Source: Bacteroidia bacterium (GTDB lineage Bacteria > Bacteroidota > Bacteroidia > J057). Taken from it: DNA of 64,000 nt. Positions 42,920-63,371 of this stretch are shown here, in pieces. The translations under genes were made by a program, and so were the position numbers. The notes under the pieces were generated by a model. That model saw nothing but the letters and a program-made list of their open reading frames with translations. It made no database searches and had not been told where the DNA came from. Position 1 is the first letter of the stretch, and each line of letters opens with the position of its first letter. The stretch spans positions 1-64,000 of the forward strand of contig JALEFZ010000008.1 in the NCBI GenBank assembly GCA_022760475.1, in the 5' to 3' direction.

Positions 42920-45502
42920 TTATGAATCCAGCCTGCTTTTACCAACTGCTAAATTCAGGGATTTCATGACCTCCCACTTCCTGGATTTGTCAAAAATGAA
43001 GGTACTTATTTTTAGGGATTTCCCTTTTGTTGCCCTGCCATCATCAGGATTAGCAGGAATTCTGGAAAGTTTTAGTTTGTAAAGATTTTCATCTTCATCC
43101 CAAATCCACCATCCGATTTGCTGGACCCATGCGCTGTTAGCTCTGCTTTGTTTAAGACTTTGAGGTAGCGTAACTGCCAATAATAATTTATTCGGATCGT
43201 GCGCTCTTTTCATCTTGAAGATGAGGTTATCCTTTAAGAGAACCAATGGATTGCTGATGTCGAATAATTCGATTTGGCTAATCATATCATCTTCTTCGAA
43301 TATGCAAAGCTCCAACTCAAAAAATCGGGCGATTTGCTTGATGTACAAATCAGCAGCAGAGGGTTGGAGATGTGAGGCACAGCCTGAAAGGGCTATCTTT
43401 ACCTTGAAGGTTTTGTGGGGCATGATGCTCAAACCGGTATCCCTAAGTTTTATTTCTTTCTCTTCATTGCTTGGAAATTCTCCCAGTGTATAGAGTGATT
43501 TTATGATGAAATCTTTATGAAACCACTGATTGTACTGCTCATGCTCAACCGGGGGGCTGGGACTATCATCCATGAGGATTAAAAACAATTGCCAAATTGA
43601 CTCCTTGTAGCCCATTTCCAGATAGGGGAGAGGTTTTGGGCTTCCGATGACCTTGAATATATCGAAAATCTGAAAGGGCATTTTTCCATCTCTCTGCTGT
43701 TTGATGAGTAATGGCCTGTCTTTGGGATTAAGCTTTAATTTGCTCACAAAAAAACCGATCTGACTGCCCACATCATCGACCTTTACCGAGAATTTATTGG
43801 AAAGGTAAAAGGTCTGAAAATAGTAGTTGGGGACAAACTGCATTCCTGGTCCATCTTCCAATTGATAATCCCAATGGATATTAAAGCGGTTTTTTGGGCC
43901 ATCAGGATCAAAATCCAGGGTGATGTGTGTTTGATGATGGGCATGTTCCTTGTTTTTTTCCCAAAAGTAGATCTTGAGTTTATCTGGGCATTTGAATTTG
44001 GGATTTCCAAGTTTACGTGCTCTTTCCCAGGTAGCTATTTGGTCAAAGGCTCTTGTGAGTATTTTTGCCCTTTGAAGGCCTATTATGTGCTTATCAAAGG
44101 GTGGTTTTCTATGAATAGAATCAAGCAGCATTCTACCCGTTTCATTGTAGGTAATCCTTAGCCCATTATCTGTATGGGCTGCTTTATATCCTGAAGAATC
44201 ATTTATCCCCTCAAGCAGTCTTTCCCTTGGAATTAAATCAAAATTGGCTTTAAAATTTTCCGTGGAGAACAGGAAGGAGTCGCCATCTACAGTTTTTTCC
44301 TGCGCCAAAAGTTCTGAGAGGATGGTCTCCTCACTTTTCAGATGTGGAAGGATCAACTCTTCCACCCCGTTATCATCAATTATTGACAATTTATCCCGAA
44401 CGACATCTACAGGAACAGCTTTATACTGCTTGCCTTTGTAGTACAAGCCATGTTGAGGGACATTGGACATGTCTACCGGACTTTCTGCAAGTCCAATCGC
44501 GATGGTACTCACCTCATGGGTTTCTATAATGTCCCCCTTAGGGAAACTTACCGAATACCTTGCCTGGGTCCCCGATTGGATGCCATGTATGACTCCCTGG
44601 TTGATAACCCATCTATTCCATTCTTTGCTAAATACGAGATATCCTGTCAGGCTGCTTCCCAATTTGTCATGCTGGAGAAAAATAGACTCAGATCTAAGAT
44701 TTCCATAAGTCTCCAACCTTGGGTTGTAGGCTTCCACTTGGGAAAGGAGTCTTTTGACCCTGTTTCGCACAACAGCTGCCAGGTTAGAATAACTGATTTG
44801 GCCTTTGGTATCCCGCAAGACATTAATCAAATGGTAGGTAAACAGCCCTTGAACTTTAGGGTTTTCAGCCTGGTTCACCTTTCTTTCTATGGCCTTTTCT
44901 CGTGGACCACAGGCCGCAAAAAGAATATGTGGAGGATTGGCATTTCTGTTTTCTTCTCCTGTCGATCCTTCTATAAATGAATCCTCAGGTCGTTGCTCTA
45001 CATTTGGTGGGGCTTTTTTTGTCCTGGATAAGGAATAGGAAATGTGCTCGATCCGGGTGCCAGAACCGGAATGGCAACAATCCAAAATAACTACCACTTC
45101 AGGGGCTTCAGGCTTATCCGTCAATTCCTTTATCAGGTATTTTAATTCGATATCTGCCAGGTCATAGCTATCAATTCGTGTATTATAACAAACCAGATTT
45201 TCGTGATAATCATCTGTCATGGATTCGACCAGAACTTCCGGGGATTTGCGGGTAGATCCATGTCCTGAAAAATAAAACAGCGCAATGTCTCCTTTTCCCG
45301 CATTGCCCAAATGCTCCCTGAACTGTTCAATGATGGATTCATAGGTGGCATCCTCACCCAGGATACGTTCGGTAGAAAAGTCAAGGCCAGATTCCTCAAG
45401 TAGGTAATTTTCTACCAATGTTACATCATTTTGAGCACCCAGTAGGTCTTGAACCCTGGGGCTGCGATAGTCATTTATACCAACAAGTAGTGCGTAGTTC
45501 AT
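42920..45502 (-). CDS. Caspase-like (peptidase C14) protease, 860 aa
   Basis: The N-terminal 250 residues are a caspase-like domain: ALLVGINDYRSPRVQDLLGA, the catalytic His81 in LFYFSGHGS, and the catalytic Cys143 in VVILDCCHSGSG, the His-Cys dyad of metacaspase-type proteases. SGSG and the acidic loop EDSFIEGSTGEEN follow. A short segment around 285-400 and a long C-terminal part (400-860) have no family I recognise; the latter has WVQQIGWWIWDEDENLYKLK near the end. No signal or membrane segment is seen, so it is cytosolic. It is the last gene of a four-gene operon with a LytTR regulator (2-base gap), a histidine kinase and a 165-residue protein, divergent from the gasdermin gene. It is a candidate activator of that pore former. 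Confidence 0.88.
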   Translation of the reverse strand: MNYALLVGINDYRSPRVQDLLGAQNDVTLVENYLLEESGLDFSTERILGEDATYESIIEQFREHLGNAGKGDIALFYFSGHGSTRKSPEVLVESMTDDYHENLVCYNTRIDSYDLADIELKYLIKELTDKPEAPEVVVILDCCHSGSGTRIEHISYSLSRTKKAPPNVEQRPEDSFIEGSTGEENRNANPPHILFAACGPREKAIERKVNQAENPKVQGLFTYHLINVLRDTKGQISYSNLAAVVRNRVKRLLSQVEAYNPRLETYGNLRSESIFLQHDKLGSSLTGYLVFSKEWNRWVINQGVIHGIQSGTQARYSVSFPKGDIIETHEVSTIAIGLAESPVDMSNVPQHGLYYKGKQYKAVPVDVVRDKLSIIDDNGVEELILPHLKSEETILSELLAQEKTVDGDSFLFSTENFKANFDLIPRERLLEGINDSSGYKAAHTDNGLRITYNETGRMLLDSIHRKPPFDKHIIGLQRAKILTRAFDQIATWERARKLGNPKFKCPDKLKIYFWEKNKEHAHHQTHITLDFDPDGPKNRFNIHWDYQLEDGPGMQFVPNYYFQTFYLSNKFSVKVDDVGSQIGFFVSKLKLNPKDRPLLIKQQRDGKMPFQIFDIFKVIGSPKPLPYLEMGYKESIWQLFLILMDDSPSPPVEHEQYNQWFHKDFIIKSLYTLGEFPSNEEKEIKLRDTGLSIMPHKTFKVKIALSGCASHLQPSAADLYIKQIARFFELELCIFEEDDMISQIELFDISNPLVLLKDNLIFKMKRAHDPNKLLLAVTLPQSLKQSRANSAWVQQIGWWIWDEDENLYKLKLSRIPANPDDGRATKGKSLKISTFIFDKSRKWEVMKSLNLAVGKSRLDS

Positions 45503-45504
45503 AA

Positions 45505-46200
45505 TTAAATGCTAATGATGGTAGGGGGATTGAAGCCTTTGGCGACGGGAAGGCGCTTGCCATTGCTCATGATGACGTAACCCCCGTCCGTACGGCTATA
45601 ACTTTCTACATACTGGATGTTGACCACGAAACTTCTGTGGATTCGATGAAATTCGAATTTTTCCAGGGCAGTGGTAATCTTACCTAAGAGGCGTGGAGAA
45701 TCTATTTCCTCCCCGTTGAACAAGGTGAAAACTGCCCGTTGGTTGGCCCCGCTGACATAAAGGATCTCCTCGAGGCTTACCAGCCTGTAGCCGTCTGAAA
45801 CTGGAATGGCAAGTCGATTGGGCTTGTCTCCAAGGCTGGATTGTCGCTTGATGACCTTTTGAACAGACTCAACCAGTTCTGTATGTGTGAATGGCTTTTT
45901 CAGGTAATCTACTGCATTGGCCTTTACAGCTTCTACTCCATAATCGCTGTGATTGGTCGTGATGATCAAATGGAAACCAATAGGTTCCAATTCTGTAAGC
46001 AGGTCAAAACCATTGACAGGTCCCAACTGGATGTCCAGGAAAACAAGGTCAGGCTTGAGGTCTCGGATGGTTTTGATGCCTTCTTCCGCCGTAAGGCATG
46101 TGCCAATCACTTCTACCTGAGGGCAATACTTTTTTAGCTTATTCTTTAGGTTAATAAGCCCATTTTCTTCATCCTCAACGATTACTGCTTTGATTTTCAT
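45505..46200 (-). CDS. LytTR response regulator, caspase operon
   Basis: A 231-residue two-component regulator. The receiver domain has VEDE, the phospho-acceptor Asp in LVFLDIQLGPVNGFDLL, and Lys in YLKKPFTHTEL. The C-terminal LytTR DNA-binding domain shows RLAIPVSDGYRLVSLEEILY and FHRIHRSFVVNIQYVESYSR. It lies between the kinase (19-base gap) and the caspase (2-base gap). It probably controls this operon and perhaps the divergent gasdermin gene, whose promoters share the 326-base gap at 48764-49089. Confidence 0.93.
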   Translation of the reverse strand: MKIKAVIVEDEENGLINLKNKLKKYCPQVEVIGTCLTAEEGIKTIRDLKPDLVFLDIQLGPVNGFDLLTELEPIGFHLIITTNHSDYGVEAVKANAVDYLKKPFTHTELVESVQKVIKRQSSLGDKPNRLAIPVSDGYRLVSLEEILYVSGANQRAVFTLFNGEEIDSPRLLGKITTALEKFEFHRIHRSFVVNIQYVESYSRTDGGYVIMSNGKRLPVAKGFNPPTIISI

Positions 46201-46219
46201 GCTTTTTCTGTTTGTTGTG

Positions 46220-48250
46220 TCAATTTTGTTCTAATGGAATCCAGAGTTTTACCCTGGTTCCTGCCGGTTCCCCATAGGTATCATACAAGTCTTCAATTTC
46301 TATCCTTCCTTTTTGGAAAGCTCCCTTATGGCTAAGCCTTTGGGCAAGGATATCAGTGCTATGGGACCTTTCTTCTTCCCTGGCAACTTTCCCCTTCAAT
46401 TCTGCTGCTTTTTTTCTTCCAATGCCATTGTCAATCACTTCACAAATGATAAATGCAGTGCTTTGTGCTTCCTTAAAATTGATTTTTAGCCATCCTTCTT
46501 GTTTATAGCCATTGATTCGATGTTGGAGGCCATGCCAGATGGCATTTTCAACGACTGGTTGTACCAGCATAGGAGGTATTTTCAGGGATCGCACAGGAAG
46601 GTTGGCATCCACTTCCAACTCGTATTCAAATTTTTCATTTAACCTCAGCCGTTCCAACTCCACATAGTTTTTCAGAATACCCAATTCTTGTTGAAGGCTG
46701 ATTTGGCTTTTGTCAGAGTTCCGAAGAATAGCGTCTGCCAATCTTGAAAATTTGACCAGGTACTCAGAAGCTTTTTCCTTTCCATCGGGCAAATCATCAT
46801 CATTGATCAGAGAATCGATTGAATTCAGGGTATTGCCAATGAAATGCGGATTCATCTTGGCTTGTGCCAATTGGAGGCTGAGCTGAAGCTCTTTCTGAAG
46901 GTTTCTCAATTGGTTTTGCTGGAAGATCAGGAAGAAAGCCAATACAAGTAGGAGCCCGATTCCGATAGAAATAAGGATCATGTTTCTTCTCTGTCTGCGG
47001 GCCTTTATGCGTTCTTCTGCAAGGTCATATTCTTTTAATTGATGATAAATTTGAGCTTCTATTCGAGCTACATTTTGACTGAAATCATCCAGGGAAGCAC
47101 TAGAAATACGTTTAAAAATGGAGTCATTGCGATCGGGATTAATGGTGTGATAGGCTTCCCAATAAGCAAGGGTTTGCTTATGCCTGGACAGATCAGCTTT
47201 TTCCATGGAGTTAATAGCTGCTTGCTCAAAATATTTTTCTGCCGAATCGGCATCAGAAGCGAATTGCCTATCCGAAATCATATACCTCTGGTGGTAGAGA
47301 TAGCCCATTTCTGCATAGACATCATGAAGGATGTAAGGGAAGGCACCCTGGAGGTTTTGCTGATATTTCAGCAAGGAGGAATCAAAATAAGCTGGAATCC
47401 CTTCTATCATGTACATGGCCAGGTATAAATCTCCTTCGAGGTTTATCGCATGACCTACAGCCTCCCGATCCGAATTCTCCCGGAATAAGTTTGCTGCTTT
47501 GCTGAATGCTTGTAGTCCCCTTTTCACTTTTTGACTATCCAGTGGACCGGTATTTCCGAAGTAATCATTCAGAATCATCTCTCGCTCAAAGTTTCCAGCA
47601 ACCCTAAGGTTTATAGCTGCATCTTCTTTTCTCCCAATTGCCAGAAAGTTTTCTGCACCTTTATAGATGATCTCAAGGCTTTTACTTACTGAATCATTTT
47701 CATAAAGGTTTGAAAATGCATGGTAGGAGGCTACCAGTCTATTAAGCCTTTCCTCTAACTCAATATTTTCTTCTTTTTTCTTGACCAGGTCAATGGCTTT
47801 TTTCAGGTCATTTAAATCCTCAATTAGAGCATTTTCAAAATCTATTTCCTTGAGTAAAAGGAGAGACTTTGCCTGCCAATAGGGCTGCTTTAAGCTAGAA
47901 AAGATCTCAACAGCTTCTTTGCCTAAGGCTTTTGCCCGCTCTGCATAAAAGCCAGAGAATTGGCGGGCTTCATTTTCAAACTTTGCCATATAATAAAAGG
48001 CAGTAGCTGTTTCTTTTTCCCGACCCAACTTGACCGCAGCACTCCTTAATTCTTTCCCCAATTCGTAGCATTTTTCTGAGTTATGGCAGGCTTCCAATTG
48101 GGTAATCATCTGTTCCAATTCCCTTACCGAATTTTGATATTGCAAACTCGCAATCCCCGCTATCAGTAGGCCAATGAGGAAAAGCAAGCCCACCCCCCGA
48201 ATCAAAGAGGGTGGGAATAATTGTTTTAGCTTCGAAAGGGTAGCATTCAT
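46220..48250 (-). CDS. LytS/YehU-type sensor histidine kinase with large extracytoplasmic sensor
   Basis: A 676-residue kinase. One membrane helix lies near residues 20-40, then about 380 residues of helical repeats (many E-K-A-rich helices, TPR-like: SKAANLFRENSDREAVGHAI, EKYFEQAAINSMEKADLSRH) that should be outside the cytoplasm, then a second helix around 425-445 and a coiled coil. The PF06580 phospho-acceptor region is MNPHFIGNTLNSIDSLI (NPHF box), and the ATP-binding N box VQPVVENAIWHGLQHRI with DNGIGRKKA follows. The ATG at 48250 is chosen; a TTG at 48265 is also in frame. Partner of the adjacent LytTR regulator. The sensor faces the same compartment as the exported TPR proteins at 53-63 kb. 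Confidence 0.9.
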   Translation of the reverse strand: MNATLSKLKQLFPPSLIRGVGLLFLIGLLIAGIASLQYQNSVRELEQMITQLEACHNSEKCYELGKELRSAAVKLGREKETATAFYYMAKFENEARQFSGFYAERAKALGKEAVEIFSSLKQPYWQAKSLLLLKEIDFENALIEDLNDLKKAIDLVKKKEENIELEERLNRLVASYHAFSNLYENDSVSKSLEIIYKGAENFLAIGRKEDAAINLRVAGNFEREMILNDYFGNTGPLDSQKVKRGLQAFSKAANLFRENSDREAVGHAINLEGDLYLAMYMIEGIPAYFDSSLLKYQQNLQGAFPYILHDVYAEMGYLYHQRYMISDRQFASDADSAEKYFEQAAINSMEKADLSRHKQTLAYWEAYHTINPDRNDSIFKRISSASLDDFSQNVARIEAQIYHQLKEYDLAEERIKARRQRRNMILISIGIGLLLVLAFFLIFQQNQLRNLQKELQLSLQLAQAKMNPHFIGNTLNSIDSLINDDDLPDGKEKASEYLVKFSRLADAILRNSDKSQISLQQELGILKNYVELERLRLNEKFEYELEVDANLPVRSLKIPPMLVQPVVENAIWHGLQHRINGYKQEGWLKINFKEAQSTAFIICEVIDNGIGRKKAAELKGKVAREEERSHSTDILAQRLSHKGAFQKGRIEIEDLYDTYGEPAGTRVKLWIPLEQN

Positions 48251-48265
48251 GGCAGCACTGATCAA

Positions 48266-48763
48266 TTAGGATTCCGGTAAGATGCTTTGGGTATAGGCTC
48301 TTAAAGATTCTAGCGCTTTTTGGGTCGATTCATCCAACTCCATTTCTGAATATTTCTGAATAAACTTTTCGTACTGCCCTTTTAAGTCCAATTGCTTGAT
48401 TGCTGCCAGGCTATTTATAAGATGCTCCAGGATCAAATCCATTTCGCCATCACCTGTTGTATGATCACCTTCGTACAGCCTGGCTAATAGAAGCGGATCA
48501 AAATCAGGTCTACTTAATTTAACAGGAGTTCCTGGACGGACGTTTTTTGACCTGTCTACCAGTATCATGATTTCGTCTTCGAGGTCTTGGTCAAGAGAAG
48601 AATTGCTCAGGCTGTTTTCCAAAGCAACCGCAGCTTCAACAATATCATTTTGTAAGTCTTCAGCGCCATCATTAAAATCAATGATTTTCTGAATCAGGTC
48701 AGATAATTCTGTGTCTACAGCCTCATCACCGGTAGGCATGAGACTGGAAAAGTAATTGCTCAT
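48266..48763 (-). CDS. 165-residue acidic helical protein, unknown
   Basis: A small, strongly acidic protein, apparently all-helical and without signal, cysteine or membrane helix. No family is recognised. It is the first gene of the kinase-regulator-caspase operon; the kinase begins 15 bases (ATG) after its stop. Position suggests a cytosolic partner or inhibitor of the kinase or caspase, but that is guesswork. Confidence 0.7.
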   Translation of the reverse strand: MSNYFSSLMPTGDEAVDTELSDLIQKIIDFNDGAEDLQNDIVEAAVALENSLSNSSLDQDLEDEIMILVDRSKNVRPGTPVKLSRPDFDPLLLARLYEGDHTTGDGEMDLILEHLINSLAAIKQLDLKGQYEKFIQKYSEMELDESTQKALESLRAYTQSILPES

Positions 48764-49089
48764 AAGTTGTGTTTAATGCATTTTGATAATTGACATAAAT
48801 AAATTGCTTGATTTTTTTGAAATTTTCTAATTTTCTGACATTATCCCTATTTCTTAATATAATTTCTGGGGTAAAATTATCAGGAGGTGGACTAGAAAAA
48901 CAGATACGTAAAGTGAATAGGTGTTTTGATCAAGAAAAGCCACCAATCTGGCTAGTGGAGGTAAAGGAAGGTTTCAACAAAAAAGCTGGCAACTAATAAT
49001 TTTTAAGAAATATTTGAAAAAGCGGAATTTTATTCTTCTTTTCATATTGGAAAAAAATAAAATTGTTAGCCATTTATAATTATTAGTCA
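48764..49089. promoter_or_regulatory. Shared divergent control region, caspase operon / gasdermin
   Basis: A 326-base, very AT-rich region between the divergent caspase-kinase operon and the gasdermin gene. It must contain both promoters and is the natural place for binding by the LytTR regulator. A 62-codon frame at 48808-48996 has no recognisable product and is not called. No clear TTTG/TAnnTTTG pair or paired LytTR-type repeat could be picked out by eye. Confidence 0.5.
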
Positions 49090-49950
49090 ATGAAAAGGAG
49101 GCTTCGACTTTGCAGCAAAGAAGATGGATTGGTGAAGTTGGTCAAAGAAGAATTGCATGCAGTATTGATTCGTGTACCTCAGGAGATATACAAACCCCTG
49201 GCAGTTTTGGTCATGGATCCAGATGGCAACATCATACCTCCGATTCGTGGAAACTTTGCCAATTACCTGACCGCTAAAGATGATTTTGAACTACGGTCGG
49301 AAGACCTGACCCCTACTCGGGTTGCCAACATTTCAGGCAAAGAAACCATAGCTTTTGATACAGATCTGGGCTTAAAGATCCTCGATGGGTACCTCAAAGG
49401 ATTTTTAGGTGGCTTGGGGGTAAGTGTCCCTTCATTTACCTTCGAAATAAATTCTTCCAAAACCATGTCATATACCTTCGAAGAGGTATACCGCATCGCC
49501 CTGGATCATGGCATGTTGGGCGATCACCTGATGATTCACCAACTGAATGTTGACAGCCCGGCAGTGAGCCAATTCCTGGGCGAAAACGCCAATCAAATGT
49601 TGTTGATTGATCAGACATTTGTTAGCAAGGAGTTCAATATTACCTTTCAGACAGAGAAACAAGGTAAACTTGAACTCGAACTGGATGCCTTGGTTGATGC
49701 TGTGGGTTCAATCAGCGAACATTTAGAAGTCAGCAGAAAAAGCAGCAGTACCGTTTCATTCAAAGGGGATAATCCACTACCATTTGCCTTTTCCTGTATC
49801 AAATTGGTAATCGACGATAAGGGAAATGTCAAGGACATACCTCAGGTACCCTTGGACATGCTACATGCCAATCGAAAGGATGAAGCAGGAGAGGTCGAGT
49901 TCCAGCACTTTTTAGAAGATGAAGGTGATATGCTTGATCTGAGTATTTAA
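49090..49950 (+). CDS. Bacterial gasdermin-family pore-forming protein
   Basis: A 286-residue protein that matches bacterial gasdermins in length and order of motifs. The N-terminus has Cys8 in RLCSKEDGLVKLVKEEL, the position of the lipidated cysteine of that family. The central NISGKETIAFDTDLGLKI, then GGLGVSVPSFTFEINSS and MSYTFEEVYRIALD follow the family's glycine-rich hairpin region, and SSTVSFKGDNPLPFAFSCIK followed by LVIDDKGNVKDI its last strands. Known members are held inactive by a short C-terminal peptide that a caspase-like protease removes, after which about 50 subunits form large membrane pores and kill the cell. Here the final 25 residues after HAN are acidic, and R262-K263 would be a natural cleavage point. 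No signal peptide. Divergent from the caspase operon; followed 21 bases later by a membrane-protein gene. Confidence 0.85.
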   Translation: MKRRLRLCSKEDGLVKLVKEELHAVLIRVPQEIYKPLAVLVMDPDGNIIPPIRGNFANYLTAKDDFELRSEDLTPTRVANISGKETIAFDTDLGLKILDGYLKGFLGGLGVSVPSFTFEINSSKTMSYTFEEVYRIALDHGMLGDHLMIHQLNVDSPAVSQFLGENANQMLLIDQTFVSKEFNITFQTEKQGKLELELDALVDAVGSISEHLEVSRKSSSTVSFKGDNPLPFAFSCIKLVIDDKGNVKDIPQVPLDMLHANRKDEAGEVEFQHFLEDEGDMLDLSI

Positions 49951-49971
49951 GCTACCGATTAACCTATCCTT

Positions 49972-50388
49972 ATGAGGCATACCGTATCTATTAAAAGCAA
50001 TCCAGACCTGGAAGAAGTTAAGAAGTTGCTTGAGGAGGCCCTTCCTGAGTCCAATCCCCAGATAGGACAAGCCCGTTTTCCTTTGGGTCGCAGGCATATT
50101 TTTGCTAAATGGGAAGGAAAACTGATCTATATCTACAAAAAGGGAAAAGGATTGTTGGTTAAGGTTCCCGAACGAAGAACATATCAAAGTTATTTGGGAA
50201 CACTGATTGGCTTGATCTTGTGGATTTTTTATATAAAAAATAATGTTTTTTGGTTTCGGATAACATTTTTCTGTCTTGTAGTCGTAATTGTTGGGGGGAT
50301 ATTTGGCCTGGTTTTTAGGCAAAACAAGCCAGGACCAAATTTCGCAATGATAGTTGCCAATTACTTAAAAGACCACTTGGAGAAGTAG
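49972..50388 (+). CDS. Two-helix membrane protein downstream of gasdermin
   Basis: A 138-residue protein with an N-terminal soluble part (about 70 residues, LEEVKKLLEEALPESNP and ARFPLGRRHIFAKWEGK) and two membrane helices near residues 74-91 and 94-115. No family is recognised. It starts 21 bases after the gasdermin stop, so it is probably co-transcribed. It may control or be the partner of gasdermin at the membrane, for which no direct evidence exists. Confidence 0.75.
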   Translation: MRHTVSIKSNPDLEEVKKLLEEALPESNPQIGQARFPLGRRHIFAKWEGKLIYIYKKGKGLLVKVPERRTYQSYLGTLIGLILWIFYIKNNVFWFRITFFCLVVVIVGGIFGLVFRQNKPGPNFAMIVANYLKDHLEK

Positions 50389-53413: not shown

Positions 53414-53435
53414 ACCCACAAAACTCATTTCCCTC

Positions 53436-56114
53436 ATGAGCCAAACACTGAAAACATATATCGGAATTCTTCTCTTGTCCTTGTTTTGGAAAAATGGAGT
53501 AAGTCAATACACCCAAAGTGGCATCATCACCCTTCAGAATTCTGGTAAAAAGGCTGTCGAGGGAGCTGAGATCGGAGCCCCTCCCTGGGGGAAGACCACG
53601 GTTACAGATAGCAAGGGGGACTTTGAACTGATTTTTTCTGGCAAAGGTGCCGGTTATGAGAGCTTTCTGAAAGTCAGGAAACCTGGATATGAGGTAGTCA
53701 ATAAGGAAGCCCTTTTTCATACCCTTACGGTAGAGGGGGAAGGTTTGAGCTTGTATATGTGTAAAGAAGGAGAGTGGCAGAAAAACGCCATTTTATACTA
53801 CGGAATCAATGAGAAAAACCTGACCCGAAGATATGAGGCGAAAATTGCCTCATTAAGGGTAAAAATGAGTGGTGAGCAGAGCAGCTTGACCGATAGCCTA
53901 AAGGGATTGCAAGCCAAATACGAGGCTGCTCTTAGCCAGGCCAAAACACTTGCGCAGAAATTTGCTACCACCAATCTGGATGACGTTTCGGATTTATACA
54001 ATGAAGCCTTTGCCCTTTTTAGAGAAGGAAAGATTGCCGCTTCTATTGAGGTTTTAAATGAAGATGCCTTGGATGAACAATACCGTAGAATCCAGAAGGA
54101 GATCAAAGATGGCAAGGAATGGATTACCATCGGGGAAGAGAAAAAGGCAATTGGTAAAGATGCGTTGGAAAGCGGGATCAAGAATTACCTATTGAGAGCA
54201 GAGCTGTTGACCATTGACCTTCGATTTGATGAAGCGGATCGGGCATATCGCAAGGCGGTGGATGCCGATACATCTAGGTGGGAAACTGCAGTTACATATG
54301 CCCAATTCTTGAATGGCCAAGGAAGGCATGAGGAGGCGGTAATTCAAAATAAAAAGGGACTAAGGTCGACAGAAAAATGGTTTGAAAAAGCCCTTTCGTT
54401 GAATGGGCTAGGCATATCATATTTTGAACTGGGAGAGTTTGGTTTGGCGAAAGAGGAATTTGAAAAAGCCATTGACTGTTTTGGTGAAAAAGCAGAGTTT
54501 CTATTTTTTTCACCAGGTAAAACCCATGTCGGTTTTATTCACATCTATACAACTGCCTTGGGAAATCTTTCAAGCTGTTACCTTATTGAAAATAATTTGG
54601 GGAAGGCTAAAGAGTTAATGAAGGAAGTCATAAAGATTTCAGGGCTATTAGAAGTCAAACCCGGGATGGTCCAATTGTCAACAAAAACTGACCTATCCAT
54701 TCTTTATCCATCGGCAAATTTCTTCAATTATTTTCAGTTAGGCGAATTATTCCTCCTAAGTAACCAGCCTGATTCTGCAATTCTCTATTCGAATAAAGGA
54801 TTGGCATATGTAGACCAGTTAATGGCTTTCAATTCCTACCAGTATGAGCCTAAGAAAGCCCTTTATTATGACTTATTAGGTAAGGCACACTTAAGTAGGC
54901 GGAATCTCAATGAAGCAAAAAACTCTTTCGAAATAGCTGTTCGCCTTACAAGAGAATTGGAGGAAAAGAATCCAGGTGTTCATGGATTAAGTTTAGCCCA
55001 ATCGTTAACAAATTTAGGTACGGTCTATTTACAAATGAATGTCCATGATAGTGTTTTATCACTTTGCCTAGAAGCGAAAAAGATTTATGAAGAGATCGAT
55101 GTTACAGGCGTTGAAATTCAAGGGAAGAGCAGGGTGTATGAGTGTTTGGGGACTGTTTATAACGCCCAAAAAAAGTTTGGACTTGGTTTAGAGCAGTACT
55201 TGAAGGCGATAGAATTAATTGAAGATTCTAATACAGAGAAAAAAGGCAGGTATCTCGCTTATTATGGAAAACTCAAGATAAATATAGGTTGGAGTTATTT
55301 TGAACTTAAAAAGTATGAAGAATCTTCAAGGATAATCAAGGAAGGTATAAATATATTAAGGCCTATCTCAATGGGGCAAAATGGGTTGGTAAATAGCTCT
55401 CTTCTTTTGGGATACGAAATTCTTGCAGTTATTGCTCATAATGACTACGCTCCTAAAGAGGCAGAATTTGCGCTGCTAAAAGCTGATTCCATAATCAAGC
55501 AAACACCTTCTGCTCCTAATTCTAAACAAGAGAAAAGATATTTGCAACGAAATAAGTATGGCGTCAGCCTTGATATAAGACACTTTTTACAAGACAACTA
55601 TATTGCAAAATATATTTCTATAAAGAAAAACTACTTCACCTATATCACTGCGACCAAATTCAAAACACTAAAGAAAGAAACAGATTTAAAGGAATTAATA
55701 AACCAACAGAAAGTCATTGCGGCTGGCTTTGAAAAGTACAGTGGAAAATATTTACAAGAAAAGGCATATAGGCATGCCATGTCAGATATTTATGGGACTC
55801 TGGCATGGTATCAGCTATTGGATAGAAACTACGAAGCTGCACTGGAAGCAGCTAATGTCAGCACCAAATTGGAACCGTTAATGAATACGGCACTTTTGGT
55901 GAAGATGCACCTGAATTTCATTGAAAAGGATCCGAATACATATTTTTCAAGCTATATATCTATGGCCTATATGCCACCCTTGATCAAAGACTATAGCTGG
56001 GGGAAAATTATCATCAACGACCTGGAGGAACTGGACTCAAGGGGCTTGATTCCAGAAGACAGGAAGCACTACATTAGCCAAATCAAGCAGATCATTAAGC
56101 AGAAAAAGCCATGA
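53436..56114 (+). CDS. Exported CarboxypepD-coiled coil-TPR protein, paralogue 1
   Basis: An 892-residue exported protein (signal peptide ending KNGVSQ). Residues about 28-115 are a CarboxypepD-like domain (GIITLQNSGKKAVEGAEIG, SKGDFELIFSGKGAGYESFL, KPGYEVVNKEALFHTL, SLYMCKEGEWQKNAILYY). A coiled coil follows to about 175, ending in ATTNLDDVSDLYNEAF, which is a near-identical hallmark in all four paralogues. TPR-type repeats fill the rest, for example FDEADRAYRKAVDADTSRWE, and the C-terminal module (NYFTYITATKFKTLK, WGKIIINDLEELDSRGLIPE) is shared with the next protein. It overlaps the next gene by 4 bases. Periplasmic sensor or scaffold is my inference. Confidence 0.85.
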   Translation: MSQTLKTYIGILLLSLFWKNGVSQYTQSGIITLQNSGKKAVEGAEIGAPPWGKTTVTDSKGDFELIFSGKGAGYESFLKVRKPGYEVVNKEALFHTLTVEGEGLSLYMCKEGEWQKNAILYYGINEKNLTRRYEAKIASLRVKMSGEQSSLTDSLKGLQAKYEAALSQAKTLAQKFATTNLDDVSDLYNEAFALFREGKIAASIEVLNEDALDEQYRRIQKEIKDGKEWITIGEEKKAIGKDALESGIKNYLLRAELLTIDLRFDEADRAYRKAVDADTSRWETAVTYAQFLNGQGRHEEAVIQNKKGLRSTEKWFEKALSLNGLGISYFELGEFGLAKEEFEKAIDCFGEKAEFLFFSPGKTHVGFIHIYTTALGNLSSCYLIENNLGKAKELMKEVIKISGLLEVKPGMVQLSTKTDLSILYPSANFFNYFQLGELFLLSNQPDSAILYSNKGLAYVDQLMAFNSYQYEPKKALYYDLLGKAHLSRRNLNEAKNSFEIAVRLTRELEEKNPGVHGLSLAQSLTNLGTVYLQMNVHDSVLSLCLEAKKIYEEIDVTGVEIQGKSRVYECLGTVYNAQKKFGLGLEQYLKAIELIEDSNTEKKGRYLAYYGKLKINIGWSYFELKKYEESSRIIKEGINILRPISMGQNGLVNSSLLLGYEILAVIAHNDYAPKEAEFALLKADSIIKQTPSAPNSKQEKRYLQRNKYGVSLDIRHFLQDNYIAKYISIKKNYFTYITATKFKTLKKETDLKELINQQKVIAAGFEKYSGKYLQEKAYRHAMSDIYGTLAWYQLLDRNYEAALEAANVSTKLEPLMNTALLVKMHLNFIEKDPNTYFSSYISMAYMPPLIKDYSWGKIIINDLEELDSRGLIPEDRKHYISQIKQIIKQKKP

Positions 56115-59100
56115 AAAAGCATTTTTGGATATTGATTTTTTTTGTGGTATTTGCTTCTGATTTATTGAGTCAATTTCCGCAGAAAGGCATCATCACCCTT
56201 CAAAATTCTGGTAAGAAGGCTGTCGAGGGAGCTGAGTTATCCTCCCTTTGGGCAAAGCCTGACATCTCTGACAACAAAGGGAACTTTGAGCTTAATTTTC
56301 AAGGAAAGGAAGCTGGCTATGAAGCCCTCATCAAGGTAAAGAAAGCTGGGTTCGAAGTAGTCAATCAGAAAGATCTTTTTCATACCCTTAGTGTTGAAAC
56401 CAGTCCCCTTAAACTGTTTATGTGTAAGGAGGGCCAATGGCAGGAAAATGCCTTAAATTTCTATAGGATAAGCCAGGAAAGCCTCACCCAAGCCTATGCA
56501 ATTAAAATTGAAGAGCTTAATGAGAGGTTAAAAAGTAATCAGAAAGCGTTAGCCGACAGCCTTTTTCACTATAAAGAAAAATATGACAGAACTTTGAACT
56601 TGGCTCGAACACTGTCTGAAAAATTTGCTACTACAAACCTGGATGATGTTTCTGATTTGTATAAAAATGCTATCCTGGCCTTCAAGGATGGAAATATTAA
56701 TGCCTCCTTGGAGGTACTTTCCGAAGAAAAACTAGAGGAGCAATACAATCGCATTAATCAGGAAATCAAGGATGGAAGAGATCTTATTTCCATTGGGGAG
56801 CTTAAAAAGGTAAACGGCAAAGAGGCATTAAAGCAGGGAATAGAAGATTATTTGCTGAGGGCAGATTTGTTGAGTATTAGGTTCAGGTTTGATGAAGCCT
56901 ACCAAGCCTACAGAAAGGCAGTGGAAGCCGATACGAGCTGGTGGTACCCCCGAGATGCTTATGCTAGTTTTCTAACATATCAGGGAGAGTATTCAAAGGC
57001 AATCGTACAATTGCAAAAAGCCCGTGGCTTGACTCGTAGAAGATGGGAATTAGGTGTGATAGATTATGGGCTGGCTGTAGCTTATGCTGAACTAGAGGAT
57101 TACTCAACTTCTATTGTATTCTTGGAAGGTATCATGGAAAGCCTAGAGAACTGGAAGCAAGTGCAGAGCTCTCAATTTGATTGGTTCTATCTCAATATTT
57201 ATTCCTTGTTGGGCAATTGTTATTTGATGCAAAATCAGTTTGAAAAAGCAAGAAAGAAACTAAAGGTCTCCCAGGCTATTTCCAGAGAACTGCTGAATTC
57301 AAGCCATACCGATCCTGAAATTTACCTTAATGCAGTTTTTGTTTCCTTCCAGGGCCTTGGGAAAACTTATCTAAGAACCAGTCAGTTTGATTCAGCGATT
57401 GTCTATCTCAACGAAGGCTTGTCTTTTGCCCGGAAGTTAACCGCCAGAAACGAGGAGGTATATGGTTTTGCAGAAGCTGAATGCCTCAATAGTTTGGCTA
57501 TGGCTCACCTGGAGGAAAGAAATTTTGAGAGAGCCATTAGCCTGAATAAGGAAGCAATACCCATTAAAATGAGGGATTACGAGCGCATTCCAAAGTCTAA
57601 TTATTTATCCCTTGCTAGTTCTTTGGCAAATTTGGGGGCAGCTTACATTGAGTCCCATAATTATACCGAGGGAGCCAAAAGCATGATGGAGGCGGAAGCC
57701 ATCCTTGAAGAATTCCGCCATGATGTGGATTATTCCTCATTTAATGAGGGGCGTTTATGTATTGACATGGCCATGCTATTTTGGAGAATCTTTGATGAGG
57801 ACAAAGCTATATTCTATGCGCAGAGAGGTTTACGTATTTTTGAGTGGCATTTGCAGAAAGATCCTTTAAGGGCAAGACCTTTTTTGGGTAGAGCAAAAAT
57901 GACTTTAGGAAAAATCTTCACAGATCAAGGCAATTTCCCAGAAGCAGAAAGTCTTTACTTGGAGTCGGTTGCCCTGTTGGATTCCCTAAATAAAAATATA
58001 GAATCCAGAGGAGCTTTTGATCGCTATTTGGCTATGGGGCATGGAGATTTAGGGATCTTGTATGACCGAATGAGCCAGTATTCCAAAAGTATTTACCACT
58101 ACAACAAGGCCATGGATTTTATTGAAAGAAATATTCTTTCATCAGCAAGGGTTTACCTTCCTCACAAAGCGAAAATACTTCAGGATAAGGCTTTGGTTCT
58201 CTCCAAAATGGAACTGATAGCTCAATCTGAGGCATGTCATAAGGAAAGCATGGCTGTTTATCAAAGGATTGAATCTGAGGTTTCCTATGTCCCCAAAAGT
58301 ATATACGCAAAATGTCTACTAGGCTATGCTGAACTAAAAATTCAAGATATCAGGGATTATCAAGCAGGAGAAGAATTGACTAAAAAGGCATTAAACATTC
58401 TGGAAGAAATTGGTACAACTAATCCTCAAGCTTTTCGAATAGATTTGATCAGGGCAAATTTACTGATGGCATTGTCCTTCAACGGCAGAAATTTGATTCA
58501 GGATGCCCGCTTAAGGATTCAAACTTGCTTGATTTTGATCGGTCAATTGTCCGAAAAGGAGCTGGCTTTTAATTTAGGCTTGGTAGCGACAGTGGAGAAT
58601 CGAATGGCAAACTACTCCCATAAACTCAGACTCTTTTCGGAGGGAAGGAAATATGCAGAATCTGCTGCCCTGAAATATGAACTGCTATTTCAAGAAGGGA
58701 ACTGTAATTTTAGTTGGGATGCGATGATAAATTACAAAACCCTCGGATCAATCAACCAATCATGGAGGGCAGGAAAAGCATCCTTGGAAGCCTGGCAAAA
58801 GGCCGATCATGTATTGAAACGTTGCTCCAATTTGGAACTAGAGAAATTAACTAGCTACCGAAGGTATTACCTTGTTAGTGGCCAGGATATCAGGCTTGAT
58901 TTGAGAACTTACATCATGGATTCCAGGATTGAGCAATATAATGCTACCCATAAAAACTACTTTACTTATATCACCAAGTCCAAATTAAGCCAATTGAAGC
59001 AAGCCAAATCCTTGCCTGATCGGATTAAGCGGCTTGAAGTAATCAAAGGTGGCTTTGAAAAGTATTTTGGTAAACTCTATAACGGTCTTGGATACCTAGA

Positions 59101-59437
59101 GGCAATGGCTGATGTCTATGGCAACCTTGCTTGGCTTCAACTAAGGGAGGGAAACATAGGTGCTGCTGGGGAGTTAGTGAAAAAGAGCATAGCAACTGAT
59201 CCTCAGGAACCACTGGCAAAGCTCCTGCAAATCCACTTGATGCTGGTGAAAGGAAATCCGGAGATGGCCGTTTTGGCTTATCAAAATAGAGAACCCAATA
59301 GCTACTTTATTGATACCATCTCATGGGGAGAAGTGATATTGAGCGATTTGGCTGAACTGGAATCAAAAGGCTTGATTCCCAAGGGCCGCCAGAAATATCT
59401 GAAACAAATAAGAACATACCTATCAACTCAACCATGA
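56111..59437 (+). CDS. Exported CarboxypepD-coiled coil-TPR protein, paralogue 2
   Basis: A 1108-residue paralogue with signal peptide (MKKHFWILIFFVVFASDLLS, then Q). Same domain order: GIITLQNSGKKAVEGAELS, FMCKEGQWQENALNFYRIS, coiled coil, ATTNLDDVSDLYKNAI, FDEAYQAYRKAVEADTSWWY. It then has a longer repeat array than paralogue 1, with clear TPRs such as GKIFTDQGNFPEAESLYLES, and the shared C-terminal NYFTYITKSKLSQLK and WGEVILSDLAELESKGLIPK. ATGA overlaps join it to genes on both sides, so translation is coupled. Variable repeat length between paralogues suggests diversifying specificity. Confidence 0.85.
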   Translation: MKKHFWILIFFVVFASDLLSQFPQKGIITLQNSGKKAVEGAELSSLWAKPDISDNKGNFELNFQGKEAGYEALIKVKKAGFEVVNQKDLFHTLSVETSPLKLFMCKEGQWQENALNFYRISQESLTQAYAIKIEELNERLKSNQKALADSLFHYKEKYDRTLNLARTLSEKFATTNLDDVSDLYKNAILAFKDGNINASLEVLSEEKLEEQYNRINQEIKDGRDLISIGELKKVNGKEALKQGIEDYLLRADLLSIRFRFDEAYQAYRKAVEADTSWWYPRDAYASFLTYQGEYSKAIVQLQKARGLTRRRWELGVIDYGLAVAYAELEDYSTSIVFLEGIMESLENWKQVQSSQFDWFYLNIYSLLGNCYLMQNQFEKARKKLKVSQAISRELLNSSHTDPEIYLNAVFVSFQGLGKTYLRTSQFDSAIVYLNEGLSFARKLTARNEEVYGFAEAECLNSLAMAHLEERNFERAISLNKEAIPIKMRDYERIPKSNYLSLASSLANLGAAYIESHNYTEGAKSMMEAEAILEEFRHDVDYSSFNEGRLCIDMAMLFWRIFDEDKAIFYAQRGLRIFEWHLQKDPLRARPFLGRAKMTLGKIFTDQGNFPEAESLYLESVALLDSLNKNIESRGAFDRYLAMGHGDLGILYDRMSQYSKSIYHYNKAMDFIERNILSSARVYLPHKAKILQDKALVLSKMELIAQSEACHKESMAVYQRIESEVSYVPKSIYAKCLLGYAELKIQDIRDYQAGEELTKKALNILEEIGTTNPQAFRIDLIRANLLMALSFNGRNLIQDARLRIQTCLILIGQLSEKELAFNLGLVATVENRMANYSHKLRLFSEGRKYAESAALKYELLFQEGNCNFSWDAMINYKTLGSINQSWRAGKASLEAWQKADHVLKRCSNLELEKLTSYRRYYLVSGQDIRLDLRTYIMDSRIEQYNATHKNYFTYITKSKLSQLKQAKSLPDRIKRLEVIKGGFEKYFGKLYNGLGYLEAMADVYGNLAWLQLREGNIGAAGELVKKSIATDPQEPLAKLLQIHLMLVKGNPEMAVLAYQNREPNSYFIDTISWGEVILSDLAELESKGLIPKGRQKYLKQIRTYLSTQP

Positions 59438-61905
59438 AAAATTTAAGCCTATTATTCCTGTGGATGGGGTTGCTCCCTATACTCTTGCCTGCCCAGCACA
59501 GCCTTCGGGGAATCATTACGTATCAAGATTCCAACAAGAAGGCCGTGGCAGGAGCAGAAGTTTCTGCCCTATGGTCCAAGAAGGACATCACCAATTCCGA
59601 TGGAGAGTTTAGCCTTTTGTATGCAAATAAGGGGCCTGGATATGAGACTTTATTGAAGGTAGTCAAACAAGGCTATGAGGTCGTAAACAAGGATGATCTC
59701 CTGCATACCCTCACAAAAAGTACAAAAGCTGTCAAGTTGTATGTATGCCCTGAGGGGGAATGGCAAAGGAAAGCGTTGGCTTATTATGAAATCAGCGAAA
59801 ATCATTTCAACCAAAAATATAAGCTTGAACAGAGCCGCATCAGAACAACCTATGCCAAGGACCTTGCCAAGATGAATGAATCATTGAGGCAACTCGATGA
59901 AAAATACAAGGCAGTATTGGGACAGATTCAAGCCTTTTCGGAACGAATGGCCAAGGCCAACCTGGATGATGTATCTGACCTTTATCAAAAGGCTTTTGAA
60001 TATTTCAAGAATGGGGAGTTTGAATTGGCGATCAGTGCTTTGAATGAAAAAGTCCTGGAAGATCAGTTCCAGCGAATACAACGTGAAACCCAGCAAGGCA
60101 AGGAATTAGTAGCCATTGGCAAGGCAAAACTGGTGGCCGGCGAAGAAGCCCTGGAACAAAGTATTGAAAATTACTTGCTAAGGGCTGATCTCCAGGTCAT
60201 TAACTTTCAGTTTGATGATGCAGACCTCAGCTTTAATAAAGCAATAGCCGCAAATCCTGAAAGGTGGAATTCTTATCACAGGTATGGAATATTTTTGCAA
60301 GAACGATCCAAATTTTCAAAGTCAACCCAAATATTAACTAAAGCCTTGTCGGTTGCCAAAGAACCTTTGGATCTCGCAATGACTCAGGCTAATGTTGGAT
60401 TGGCTTTATTTCGGGAAAATCGTTTCAAAGAAAGCCTCGAAATATTGGAAAAACCCCTGATTACCTCTGCCAAACTATACAAGGAATATCCGGAAAATTA
60501 TGGAGCATTTTATAGTGAAGTATTAAATGCTAAAGGCTTAGCTCATCTGGGTTTGAATAATGTGGATAGCGCAGGGGTCATTCTTCATCAAGCAATTAAC
60601 CTTCTGTCCGATTTACTTGAGGTCATAAAGGAGGAGGACGTGAAATCAAGAGTTGTAATTGCAGTTGAACTGGCAAATACGGCAATCAACCTTGGGAATG
60701 CCTATGCAAAGGTAATGAATTATGAAAATGCCATCAAATTTTGCGGAATAGCCAGGGATATATATCGTCCTATTGTACAAGTCCGGTTCCGGGAGGCTGC
60801 TCCTTACTATGCAGACATTCTTAGTAACCTGGGAACTATGAAAGTCGCTTCAGGTAGGAGGGTGGAAGGAATTACTACTGTGGACTCTGCCATTCAAATT
60901 GTTAGAAAACTTGCTGAGGAAGATCCTGAAATATTCAATCCGAAGTTGGCTGTTTATTTGAATACCCTGGGGCTGTTGTCCTATGGAGCAAAAAGGGATT
61001 TGTACAGCCAGAAATGTTTGGAAGAATCAAAGGACATTTTACAGCTATATTATACCCATGAAAAGGATGCCTATGCGATCCAGATGTTCAGTATCCTTTT
61101 GAACCTTGGAAACTTATATACCCTCCAAGGGAAGTATGTTTTGGCAAAAATGAACTTATTATCGGCTGAAAGGATTCGATTGGAGCAATCAAAGGAGGGG
61201 ATCAATTCTTATGGCCCTGACTTGATCAGAATTCAGATAGGTCGTTGTAATTTGTTCGTCGAGGAATTTGCCAATTCAAATTCATCAGAAAGACTTAAAG
61301 TGGACTCTGTTTTTAAATATGTAAGAAAGGCGGAGCAACTCATTTCGAAGTGTAATTCTACCGTTGAGATTGATAGTTTAACCGATAATATAAAGTGGTA
61401 TGGGGCGACTGCAAGGGTGTATCAAGCTGATTATGATGGCAGCCGTCAAAAGTTGACTACAGCCTTTCAATATTCCAAGACAAGTCGGGAACGAGAAGAA
61501 ATTTTGGATCAATTGATCCCAATGTTTGAGGATGAGCTTCTATACAAACAGCGGCTAATAAATGTGAAAGATCTAAAAATAGCCTTGGCAGAAAGTTATG
61601 GCTTGTATTGCCTGGCGCAACTGTCCAACAAACATTTCAAAAAAGCAGAGATTTCAGCCGTGCGGGCGAGAGAATTAGACCCTGGCCAGGAATGGGTTGA
61701 GGTAGGTTACGCCCTTGCCAAACTGCTTCAGGGAGAATATGAAACCGCACGAAGGATTTTACTGGTTGAAAAGGATAAAGTTTATCAAAAGACCTACACC
61801 CGAGGAGTCTATGCCAATGGGGTGCTAAACTTATTAAAGCAGAACAATGCCATTCCTTCAGAGCGGGGGAAAGACGTTCAGAAAATCAGGAAAATACTCA
61901 AGTGA
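59434..61905 (+). CDS. Exported CarboxypepD-coiled coil-TPR protein, paralogue 3
   Basis: An 823-residue paralogue with signal peptide MKNLSLLFLWMGLLPILLPA. The CarboxypepD-like domain reads GIITYQDSNKKAVAGAEVSA, KQGYEVVNKDDLLHTL, LYVCPEGEWQRKALAYY; the hallmark is MAKANLDDVSDLYQKAF. TPR helices follow (FDDADLSFNKAIAANPERWN, LNLGNLYTLQGKYVLAKMNL). The C-terminal part differs from paralogues 1 and 2 and ends with a TPR-like pair. It overlaps paralogue 2 by 4 bases; a 50-base gap leads to paralogue 4. Confidence 0.84.
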   Translation: MKNLSLLFLWMGLLPILLPAQHSLRGIITYQDSNKKAVAGAEVSALWSKKDITNSDGEFSLLYANKGPGYETLLKVVKQGYEVVNKDDLLHTLTKSTKAVKLYVCPEGEWQRKALAYYEISENHFNQKYKLEQSRIRTTYAKDLAKMNESLRQLDEKYKAVLGQIQAFSERMAKANLDDVSDLYQKAFEYFKNGEFELAISALNEKVLEDQFQRIQRETQQGKELVAIGKAKLVAGEEALEQSIENYLLRADLQVINFQFDDADLSFNKAIAANPERWNSYHRYGIFLQERSKFSKSTQILTKALSVAKEPLDLAMTQANVGLALFRENRFKESLEILEKPLITSAKLYKEYPENYGAFYSEVLNAKGLAHLGLNNVDSAGVILHQAINLLSDLLEVIKEEDVKSRVVIAVELANTAINLGNAYAKVMNYENAIKFCGIARDIYRPIVQVRFREAAPYYADILSNLGTMKVASGRRVEGITTVDSAIQIVRKLAEEDPEIFNPKLAVYLNTLGLLSYGAKRDLYSQKCLEESKDILQLYYTHEKDAYAIQMFSILLNLGNLYTLQGKYVLAKMNLLSAERIRLEQSKEGINSYGPDLIRIQIGRCNLFVEEFANSNSSERLKVDSVFKYVRKAEQLISKCNSTVEIDSLTDNIKWYGATARVYQADYDGSRQKLTTAFQYSKTSREREEILDQLIPMFEDELLYKQRLINVKDLKIALAESYGLYCLAQLSNKHFKKAEISAVRARELDPGQEWVEVGYALAKLLQGEYETARRILLVEKDKVYQKTYTRGVYANGVLNLLKQNNAIPSERGKDVQKIRKILK

Positions 61906-61955
61906 GGGTATAAATCCTTATTTTATGTGATCATGCTAATCCAATCATTTTCAAG

Positions 61956-63371
61956 ATGAATAGACTTATTAATCTGGCAGTATTGTTAAGTTTCCTGGGG
62001 ACTATTCAGGTTTTTTCCCAGAATGCTGTCAATGGCTTGGTAACCATCCAAAACTCAGAAAACACCCCCATTGAAGGTGCAGAGGTATCTGAGGGCTTTT
62101 CCAAGCCGGTCATTACTGATAGCAAGGGGGAATTTCAGCTTTTGTATAATGGAAAAAGCGAAGGGTATAAGATGAATGTAGAGGTGAAATACCCTGGTTA
62201 TGAGGTCGTCAACCAACGTGCCCTCCAACATACCATCCGCAAAGACCAGCGAAGGAAGTTTAAAATCTATATGTGTAAGGAAGGTGAATGGGAAGAAAAT
62301 GCAATTCGCTTTTACAACATCAATGAGAAGGTCATTACTCAAAAGTATGAAAATGAGGTTCAAAGGCTCAGGAAAGAGCTAAAGAATCAAAGCCGCCTTC
62401 TGAGTGATTCATTGAGTATCTTGCAAAATAACTATAAAAATGCCCTGGCTGTAGCCCAAAGGTTGGCTGAACAGTTTGCTGTGGCCAATCTGGATGATGC
62501 AGATGAGCTATATAAGGCAGCTTATGAACAGTTTAAAAAGGGAAACATTGACAGTGCCATCATTATCCTCGATGAAAATCAGTTGGATGAAGACATCTTC
62601 AATGCTAAAAATGAGATTGATCAAGGAAATATCATGATCAACGGTGGGACAGAGAAAGTTTTGAATGGGGAAAAAAAGAAGAAGTATTTGGCCAAGTCCT
62701 ACCTGACCAGGTATAGAGGGCTCAAGCAAAAGGGCAATCCTGATCTTGGATTTTCTATCAAACGGGCTTTCGAACTCGACTCTACCAATTTCATCATCCG
62801 ACAAGCGTATGCCGATTTTCTTCATCCGGATACTGCCTTTCGAAGGCATTACTACTTGTTGATTGCAGAGAGCCAATCCATCGATCAGAAAATCCTCATG
62901 TGGCAAAGGCTCATCGATTCTTATGAATCTTTCAAACAGGATGAGCAAATGGTGGCCTCCCTGTACCGAGCCATCAAACTTTCGAAGGGCAAGGAGGGAA
63001 ATTATGCCCTGATAGTTAGGCTTGGAGATTATATCTCTGGTGAAGTGGAGTCTCTTGTCTTTGACGGAAAAGCCAAGGAGGCAGAAGAGATGGCCTATAA
63101 ATTCATGAATTTAGGCTTGCCAAATGCTTATCGCTCAAAGACTCCCTTCAAAAAGCTTCAAAGCCTCACTGCTTTGTCAAAGTTGGTGCAAGGGCGTTTT
63201 GAAGAAGCAAACTTTGCTTATCAGGAATTAATCGTAGATGGAAATTACAGCACAGAGGATTTACAATTGGCTTTGGAAGATTTGCAAAGAGCCAAAACCC
63301 AACTTGGAGAAAGTAAGGAACTCAAAAAGTTGGAAAAGATGCTTCTCAAGGAAATCAAGAAAAGAGCCTAG
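61956..63371 (+). CDS. Exported CarboxypepD-coiled coil protein, short paralogue 4
   Basis: A 471-residue paralogue with signal peptide ending IQVFSQ. It keeps the CarboxypepD-like domain (GLVTIQNSENTPIEGAEVS, IYMCKEGEWEENAIRFY), the coiled coil and the hallmark VANLDDADELYKAAYEQFKK, but has a much shorter repeat region (SYLTRYRGLKQKGNPDLGFS, ELDSTNFIIRQAYADFLHPD) and a basic C-terminal end. Last gene of the run. It may be a truncated or accessory form; no frameshift is seen. Confidence 0.82.
   Translation: MNRLINLAVLLSFLGTIQVFSQNAVNGLVTIQNSENTPIEGAEVSEGFSKPVITDSKGEFQLLYNGKSEGYKMNVEVKYPGYEVVNQRALQHTIRKDQRRKFKIYMCKEGEWEENAIRFYNINEKVITQKYENEVQRLRKELKNQSRLLSDSLSILQNNYKNALAVAQRLAEQFAVANLDDADELYKAAYEQFKKGNIDSAIIILDENQLDEDIFNAKNEIDQGNIMINGGTEKVLNGEKKKKYLAKSYLTRYRGLKQKGNPDLGFSIKRAFELDSTNFIIRQAYADFLHPDTAFRRHYYLLIAESQSIDQKILMWQRLIDSYESFKQDEQMVASLYRAIKLSKGKEGNYALIVRLGDYISGEVESLVFDGKAKEAEEMAYKFMNLGLPNAYRSKTPFKKLQSLTALSKLVQGRFEEANFAYQELIVDGNYSTEDLQLALEDLQRAKTQLGESKELKKLEKMLLKEIKKRA

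What the first reader, a model, noticed from the sequence alone, without database searches (positions are those of the whole stretch)
42920..63371. Candidate trans-envelope suicide system combining gasdermin, two proteases, LytTR signalling and an exported TPR array
In one 20-kb locus are a cytosolic caspase, a gasdermin, a membrane-anchored CHAT protease whose outside part carries a CarboxypepD-like domain, four exported proteins with the same domain plus TPRs, a kinase with a large extracytoplasmic helical sensor, and three small membrane proteins. The shared domain between the CHAT protein and exported proteins suggests they meet in the periplasm. I infer that envelope events (phage entry, damage) are sensed outside and relayed to proteases that free the gasdermin. 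I do not know this combination as a described system.
Basis: inference. Interest (0 to 1): 0.96.

Follow-up and report, generated by a model that had tools for sequence, protein, structure and literature searches.

The report
Gasdermin cassette beside a CHAT-protease receptor
A bacterial "suicide pore" gene with its activating protease sits next to genes for a membrane receptor that carries a second protease inside the cell and pairs with exported sensor-like proteins; the receptor belongs to a small, swappable family not previously described as far as could be checked, but its link to the suicide pore is seen in this one genome only.

Summary
They are best read as two neighbouring modules, not one conserved system.

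Module A is a gasdermin-caspase cassette of a known kind; in the only other family genome with a gasdermin the same pair occurs, on a 7.6 kb contig without CHAT or TPR genes.

Module B (52076-53413 plus the TPR genes) belongs to an apparently undescribed family of trans-envelope receptors. The same transmembrane/extracytoplasmic part occurs with EAD11 (four loci, one in this genome), CHAT (this locus and one frameshifted relative) or an anti-sigma-like domain (one) on the cytosolic side, always followed by an exported CarboxypepD protein (seven of seven). Only the window copy lies by a gasdermin; four genomes with the receptor show no gasdermin hit. EAD11 and CHAT are also fused in single cytosolic proteins in eight family genomes, so CHAT-TM looks like a direct fusion of a receptor that elsewhere would recruit CHAT through EAD11.

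Whether this receptor triggers this gasdermin is open (about 0.35).

The parts
49090..49950 (+). bacterial gasdermin (286 aa); C8 is the only N-terminal cysteine (possible acylation site); R262/K263 lie 23-24 residues before the C-terminus, a plausible cleavage site
   Evidence: cleavage about 20 residues from the C-terminus after L or R is reported for bGSDMs in PMC9612521
42920..45502 (-). caspase-like (Peptidase_C14) protease, 860 aa, H81/C143, no TM; homologous to the gasdermin-adjacent caspases in G006 and G105 over the protease part only
45505..46200 (-). response regulator with LytTR DNA-binding domain (D56)
46220..48265 (-). sensor histidine kinase, two TM helices about 385 residues apart, H474 (ATG start at 48250 possible instead of TTG 48265)
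48266..48763 (-). orphan helical protein P0004 (165 aa), first gene of the kinase/regulator/caspase operon
   Evidence: AlphaFold model too poor to use
49972..50388 (+). small membrane protein P0006, 21 nt downstream of the gasdermin
50618..51166 (+). small membrane protein P0007, homologous to P0008
51208..51744 (+). small membrane protein P0008
52076..53413 (+). receptor P0009: CHAT (residues 1-165, H73/C109), TM (about 222-243), extracytoplasmic C-terminal region ending in a CarboxypepD-like domain
53436..56114 (+). exported CarboxypepD + TPR protein P0010 (892 aa)
56111..59437 (+). exported CarboxypepD + TPR protein P0011 (1108 aa)
59434..61905 (+). exported CarboxypepD + TPR protein P0012 (823 aa)
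61956..63371 (+). exported CarboxypepD protein P0013 (471 aa) of the same family; TPR support marginal

Best explanation
The locus is two adjacent modules. Module A (42920-50388, perhaps to 51744) is a gasdermin-caspase death cassette: the caspase would clip the short C-terminal tail of the gasdermin (candidate site R262/K263), whose pore domain then perforates the inner membrane; a divergent operon adds a two-component system that probably sets expression. Module B (52076-63371) is a trans-envelope receptor: exported CarboxypepD/TPR proteins sense or bind something outside the inner membrane and engage the extracytoplasmic beta-domains of P0009, whose single TM carries the change to a cytosolic CHAT protease. 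The same receptor body is used with EAD11 (which would recruit EAD11-fused effectors, among them EAD11-CHAT proteins) or with an anti-sigma-like domain, so the cytosolic output is swappable; in the window the protease is fused directly. Shown: domain content, gene order, reuse of the receptor body with different cytosolic domains, constant exported partner. Inferred: signalling direction, binding between P0009 and P0010-P0013, protease activity, EAD11 homotypic recruitment. Open (about 0.35): whether CHAT acts on the caspase or gasdermin next door.
For: Gasdermin and caspase identity and the same pair in G006. Receptor body of P0009 homologous to that of EAD11-TM proteins (hmmsearch 1e-5) and these to an anti-sigma-like TM protein (1e-23). 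EAD11 well over its cut-off in the three of the four receptors scanned with Pfam and by a local profile in the fourth. Exported CarboxypepD partner immediately downstream in 7 of 7 receptor loci: window, G000:C78, G010:C1223, G010:C1228, L131, L132, L133. EAD11 and CHAT in one polypeptide in eight family genomes including this one. CHAT relatives of P0009 lie in nSTAND1 and iSTAND/AAA conflict-type operons. P0001-like caspases neighbour CHAT genes without gasdermin in G013 and G014. The host genome holds 33 EAD11 matches and several other EAD11-TM-ectodomain proteins.
Against: Receptor-body homology of P0009 itself is modest (20-26% identity) and rests mainly on the C-terminal half. CHAT-TM + TPR is known from two loci, one split by a frameshift on a 4.1 kb contig. 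The exported proteins have no known ligand. The structure model of the receptor ectodomain was unusable. No co-occurrence of the two modules was found outside this genome. A 331 nt gap separates module B from P0008, so a shared transcript is not shown.
Confidence: 0.62

Rival explanations
1. One integrated system: envelope events sensed by the TPR array and the kinase are relayed to CHAT and caspase, which together free the gasdermin.
For: Both modules in one 20 kb stretch; expected chance proximity of any CHAT/EAD11 gene within 5 kb is about 0.055; caspase and CHAT genes are neighbours at two other loci; CHAT is listed among the proteases of bGSDM operons (PMC9612521).
Against: Six other receptor loci lack an adjacent gasdermin; four genomes with the receptor give no gasdermin hit; the gasdermin-caspase contig of G006 has no receptor; P0004 and the kinase were not seen with other gasdermins.
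Confidence: 0.3
2. Module B is an envelope-stress or cell-contact regulator unrelated to death: CHAT releases a cytosolic regulator, as an anti-sigma receptor would, and proximity to the gasdermin is an accident of defence-gene clustering.
For: The same receptor body sits behind a sigma factor gene with an anti-sigma-like N-terminus in a Bacteroidales MAG (L133); EAD11 copies are not next to recognised effectors.
Against: CHAT relatives sit in nSTAND/iSTAND conflict-type operons; in L133 the exported partner itself carries a caspase domain.
Confidence: 0.25
3. The exported TPR proteins and P0009 form an envelope scaffold (for example of a secretion or surface structure) and CHAT is a processing protease for it, with no signalling role.
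For: TPR arrays are common scaffolds; four tandem paralogs suggest structural multiplicity.
Against: EAD11 or an anti-sigma-like domain can replace CHAT on the same body, which fits signalling better than processing; CHAT is on the other side of the membrane from the TPR proteins.
Confidence: 0.1

Closest known systems
Bacterial gasdermin-protease (bGSDM) systems (Johnson et al. 2022; reviewed in PMC9612521, PMC9079055)
   Same: gasdermin over the curated cut-off, adjacent caspase-like protease, short C-terminal tail with a basic residue at about the expected distance
   Different: caspase is on a divergent operon with a LytTR two-component system and an orphan protein; a transmembrane CHAT receptor with exported TPR proteins lies next door
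Effector-associated-domain conflict systems of multicellular bacteria (Kaur et al. 2020, PMC7159879; 2021, PMC8195603)
   Same: EAD-type and caspase-like peptidase modules, EAD-effector fusions, many copies per genome; EAD11-CHAT fusions and STAND-linked CHAT genes were seen here
   Different: EAD11 or CHAT is placed on a single-pass receptor with an extracytoplasmic CarboxypepD region and an exported partner; no NTPase in the module; EAD11 is not named in either paper's main text
TPR-CHAT (Csx29) of Craspase (PMC9729208)
   Same: a CHAT protease associated with TPR units (lead from the literature, no sequence test made)
   Different: here the TPRs are on separate exported proteins across the membrane; no CRISPR parts were seen among P0001-P0013
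Sigma/anti-sigma trans-envelope regulators of Bacteroidota
   Same: L133: sigma-70 region 4 gene, TM protein with the same extracytoplasmic body, exported CarboxypepD partner
   Different: the cytosolic domain in the window is a protease; no sigma factor in the module

Membership tests
bacterial gasdermin system | gasdermin family match over curated cut-off | tested here: met
   NF051890 137.6 bits vs 100; PADLOC 2.4e-47
bacterial gasdermin system | adjacent caspase-like, CHAT or trypsin-like protease | tested here: met
   P0001 on the divergent operon, P0009 2.1 kb downstream
bacterial gasdermin system | cleavage near the C-terminus by the neighbouring protease | not testable with these tools
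   R262/K263 are only candidates
bacterial gasdermin system | N-terminal acylated cysteine | tested here: inconclusive
   only C8; the reported site is C3 in Bradyrhizobium; the two well-scoring class homologs L069/L070 have no N-terminal Cys
CHAT protease | Pfam CHAT over cut-off and His/Cys pair | tested here: met
   36.4 bits vs 24; H73, C109
EAD11 receptor-type proteins | EAD11 domain in the protein | tested here: not met
   P0009 has CHAT instead; only the TM/extracytoplasmic part is shared
trans-envelope receptor module defined here | TM + CarboxypepD body homologous to the EAD11 receptors | tested here: met
   hmmsearch 1e-5; phmmer 3e-5 and 1e-4
trans-envelope receptor module defined here | exported CarboxypepD partner gene immediately downstream | tested here: met
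   7 of 7 loci
EAD/STAND ternary conflict system | STAND, MoxR/vWA or GTPase core component in the operon | tested here: not met
   no NTPase among P0001-P0013 by Pfam

The most novel reading that the evidence does not exclude
The window encodes an outside-in death receptor of bacteria: exported TPR proteins detect an envelope event, the single-pass receptor P0009 activates its cytosolic CHAT, and CHAT triggers the caspase or the gasdermin directly, which would be a membrane-receptor trigger for a bacterial gasdermin.
Probability: 0.3. Interest if true: 0.87.

Novelty: new variant of a known kind. Interest (0 to 1): 0.62.

Why it matters
What activates bacterial gasdermins is stated as an open question (PMC9612521). 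The receptor family found here gives bacteria something shaped like a metazoan death receptor: outside sensor, one membrane pass, and on the inside either a death-type protease or an adaptor domain of the kind proposed to recruit one. It yields concrete, testable gene pairs, and one place where such a receptor lies beside a gasdermin. If the coupling fails, the receptor family still links an envelope-sensing body to three different cytosolic outputs.

Tried and rejected
Phylum-wide searches with the TPR N-terminus and the receptor body returned, outside the host's family, mostly partial CarboxypepD matches in long open frames; these were not counted as members. L201, L202, L203 and L204 match the receptor body but have no CHAT or EAD11 assigned and were left out of the seven. 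P0004 and receptor-ectodomain structure predictions were too poor (pLDDT 57 and 45), so no fold search was run. A Bacteroidota-type promoter pattern was not found in full in the intergenic gaps. No integrase was identified: the gene after tRNA-Val is a weak SIR2_2/Tis1_ImmP match, not a recombinase. Primary bGSDM papers were not held in the library, so reviews were used.

Full report
Observation. The window lies in a 6.86 Mb genome of 96 contigs. The named relatives found by the TPR genes are Saprospiraceae MAGs, so the host is probably a Bacteroidota of that kind (inference). The gasdermin is firm. The caspase and CHAT catalytic pairs are intact. The four exported proteins are paralogs sharing an N-terminal CarboxypepD-like region and the hallmark NLDD; three have clear TPRs and the fourth only marginal ones. 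The domain shared with P0009 is supported by profile-profile comparison but is a widespread fold in this phylum, so by itself it does not prove that the proteins meet.

Gene order. On the minus strand P0004, kinase, LytTR regulator and caspase are closely packed. On the plus strand the gasdermin is followed by P0006 after 21 nt, then P0007-P0008 after 229 nt, then after 331 nt P0009-P0013, packed with gaps of 22 nt, overlaps of 4 and 4 nt, and a gap of 50 nt. This suggests at least two plus-strand transcripts (inference).

Gasdermin cassette. Gasdermins are rare here: 2 of 22 genomes in the order, 8 of 395 in a class sample and 4 of 395 in a phylum sample, counting weak matches. In G006 a weakly scoring gasdermin is followed by a caspase similar to P0001 (3e-37) on a 7.6 kb contig with no CHAT or TPR gene. 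In G105 a weak gasdermin-like gene diverges from a caspase. The C-terminal 500 or so residues of P0001 are not conserved between these. A gasdermin next to a caspase-like protease is the known arrangement (PMC9612521, PMC9079055).

Receptor module. Searching with the TPR N-terminus found an operon in the host genome itself (C78) and in G010, L131 and L132, in which the exported TPR gene follows a protein with the order EAD11, one TM, CarboxypepD-type region. The TM/extracytoplasmic part matches P0009 (1e-5) and an anti-sigma-like TM protein in a Bacteroidales MAG (1e-23), which follows a sigma-70 region 4 gene and precedes an exported protein with CarboxypepD and caspase domains. A second CHAT-TM-CarboxypepD plus exported TPR locus is in G010:C1228, where the receptor reading is broken by a frameshift and the contig ends in the TPR gene. 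In all seven loci the exported partner is the next gene. Only the window has a gasdermin next to it; G010, G736, G737 and G738 gave no gasdermin match, with the caveats that the MAGs are fragmentary, that two of the loci are on contigs under 5 kb, and that the last search rang in no control genome.

Link between EAD11 and CHAT. In eight family genomes, the host included, EAD11 and CHAT lie in one polypeptide without a predicted TM. Domains found fused in one protein and exchanged on the same receptor body suggest a shared pathway: EAD11 receptors may recruit EAD11-CHAT, and P0009 may bypass recruitment by direct fusion. Homotypic recruitment by EADs is proposed in PMC7159879 for other EADs; it was not tested here. 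CHAT relatives of P0009 are present, usually in several copies, in every genome of the family and often sit beside nSTAND1 or AAA/iSTAND genes, a conflict-system setting.

Coupling. With 38 CHAT/EAD11 genes in 6.86 Mb, 0.055 would be expected within 5 kb of the gasdermin by chance, without allowing for the clustering of defence genes. CHAT and P0001-type caspases are neighbours at two other loci without gasdermin (L086, L089). This makes coupling plausible, not shown. I put it at about 0.35, and the full outside-in chain at 0.3.

Verdict. The parts are confirmed. The single-system reading is not supported by comparison. The receptor family with swappable cytosolic outputs is the more interesting result. 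No paper in the held library describing it turned up in the searches made; subscription papers and preprints were largely out of reach.

Noticed in passing
L133:8596-11194: Bacteroidales MAG: sigma-70 region 4 gene, anti-sigma-like TM protein with the P0009-type extracytoplasmic body, and an exported protein with CarboxypepD and caspase (C14) domains in one run of genes.
   Followed up: partly
L072:7655-10448; L074:8256-10520: Weak gasdermin-like proteins with lipoprotein-type signal peptides beside a caspase that also has one (L072), or beside a protein with a signal peptide that looks papain-like by eye but has no Pfam match (L074): possible exported gasdermin-like/protease pairs.
   Followed up: no
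L231:4928-7237: Host-genome protein with EAD11, a TM and an NlpC/P60 peptidoglycan-hydrolase domain on the far side of the membrane.
   Followed up: partly
L227:4406-8999: EAD11-TM protein with a weak DUF4384 match, followed by a 1176 aa exported protein that looks like WG repeats: another receptor-plus-exported-partner layout.
   Followed up: no
L235:3560-4552; L236:4372-5574; L247:1292-2260: Three further EAD11-TM proteins of the host genome with unassigned far-side regions.
   Followed up: no
L089:6076-11788; L086:3678-11176: P0001-like caspase genes next to or near P0009-like CHAT genes without a gasdermin.
   Followed up: partly
window 39258-40136: FGE-sulfatase-domain gene 2.8 kb from the caspase; genes of this fold are reported near some bGSDM genes (PMC9612521), link here unknown.
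   Followed up: no
window 37945-39168: Gene just after tRNA-Val with sub-threshold SIR2_2 and Tis1_ImmP matches.
   Followed up: no
L082:1077-4157: G006, the other gasdermin genome of the family, has a lone exported TPR homolog on a different contig, with no receptor gene seen beside it.
   Followed up: partly
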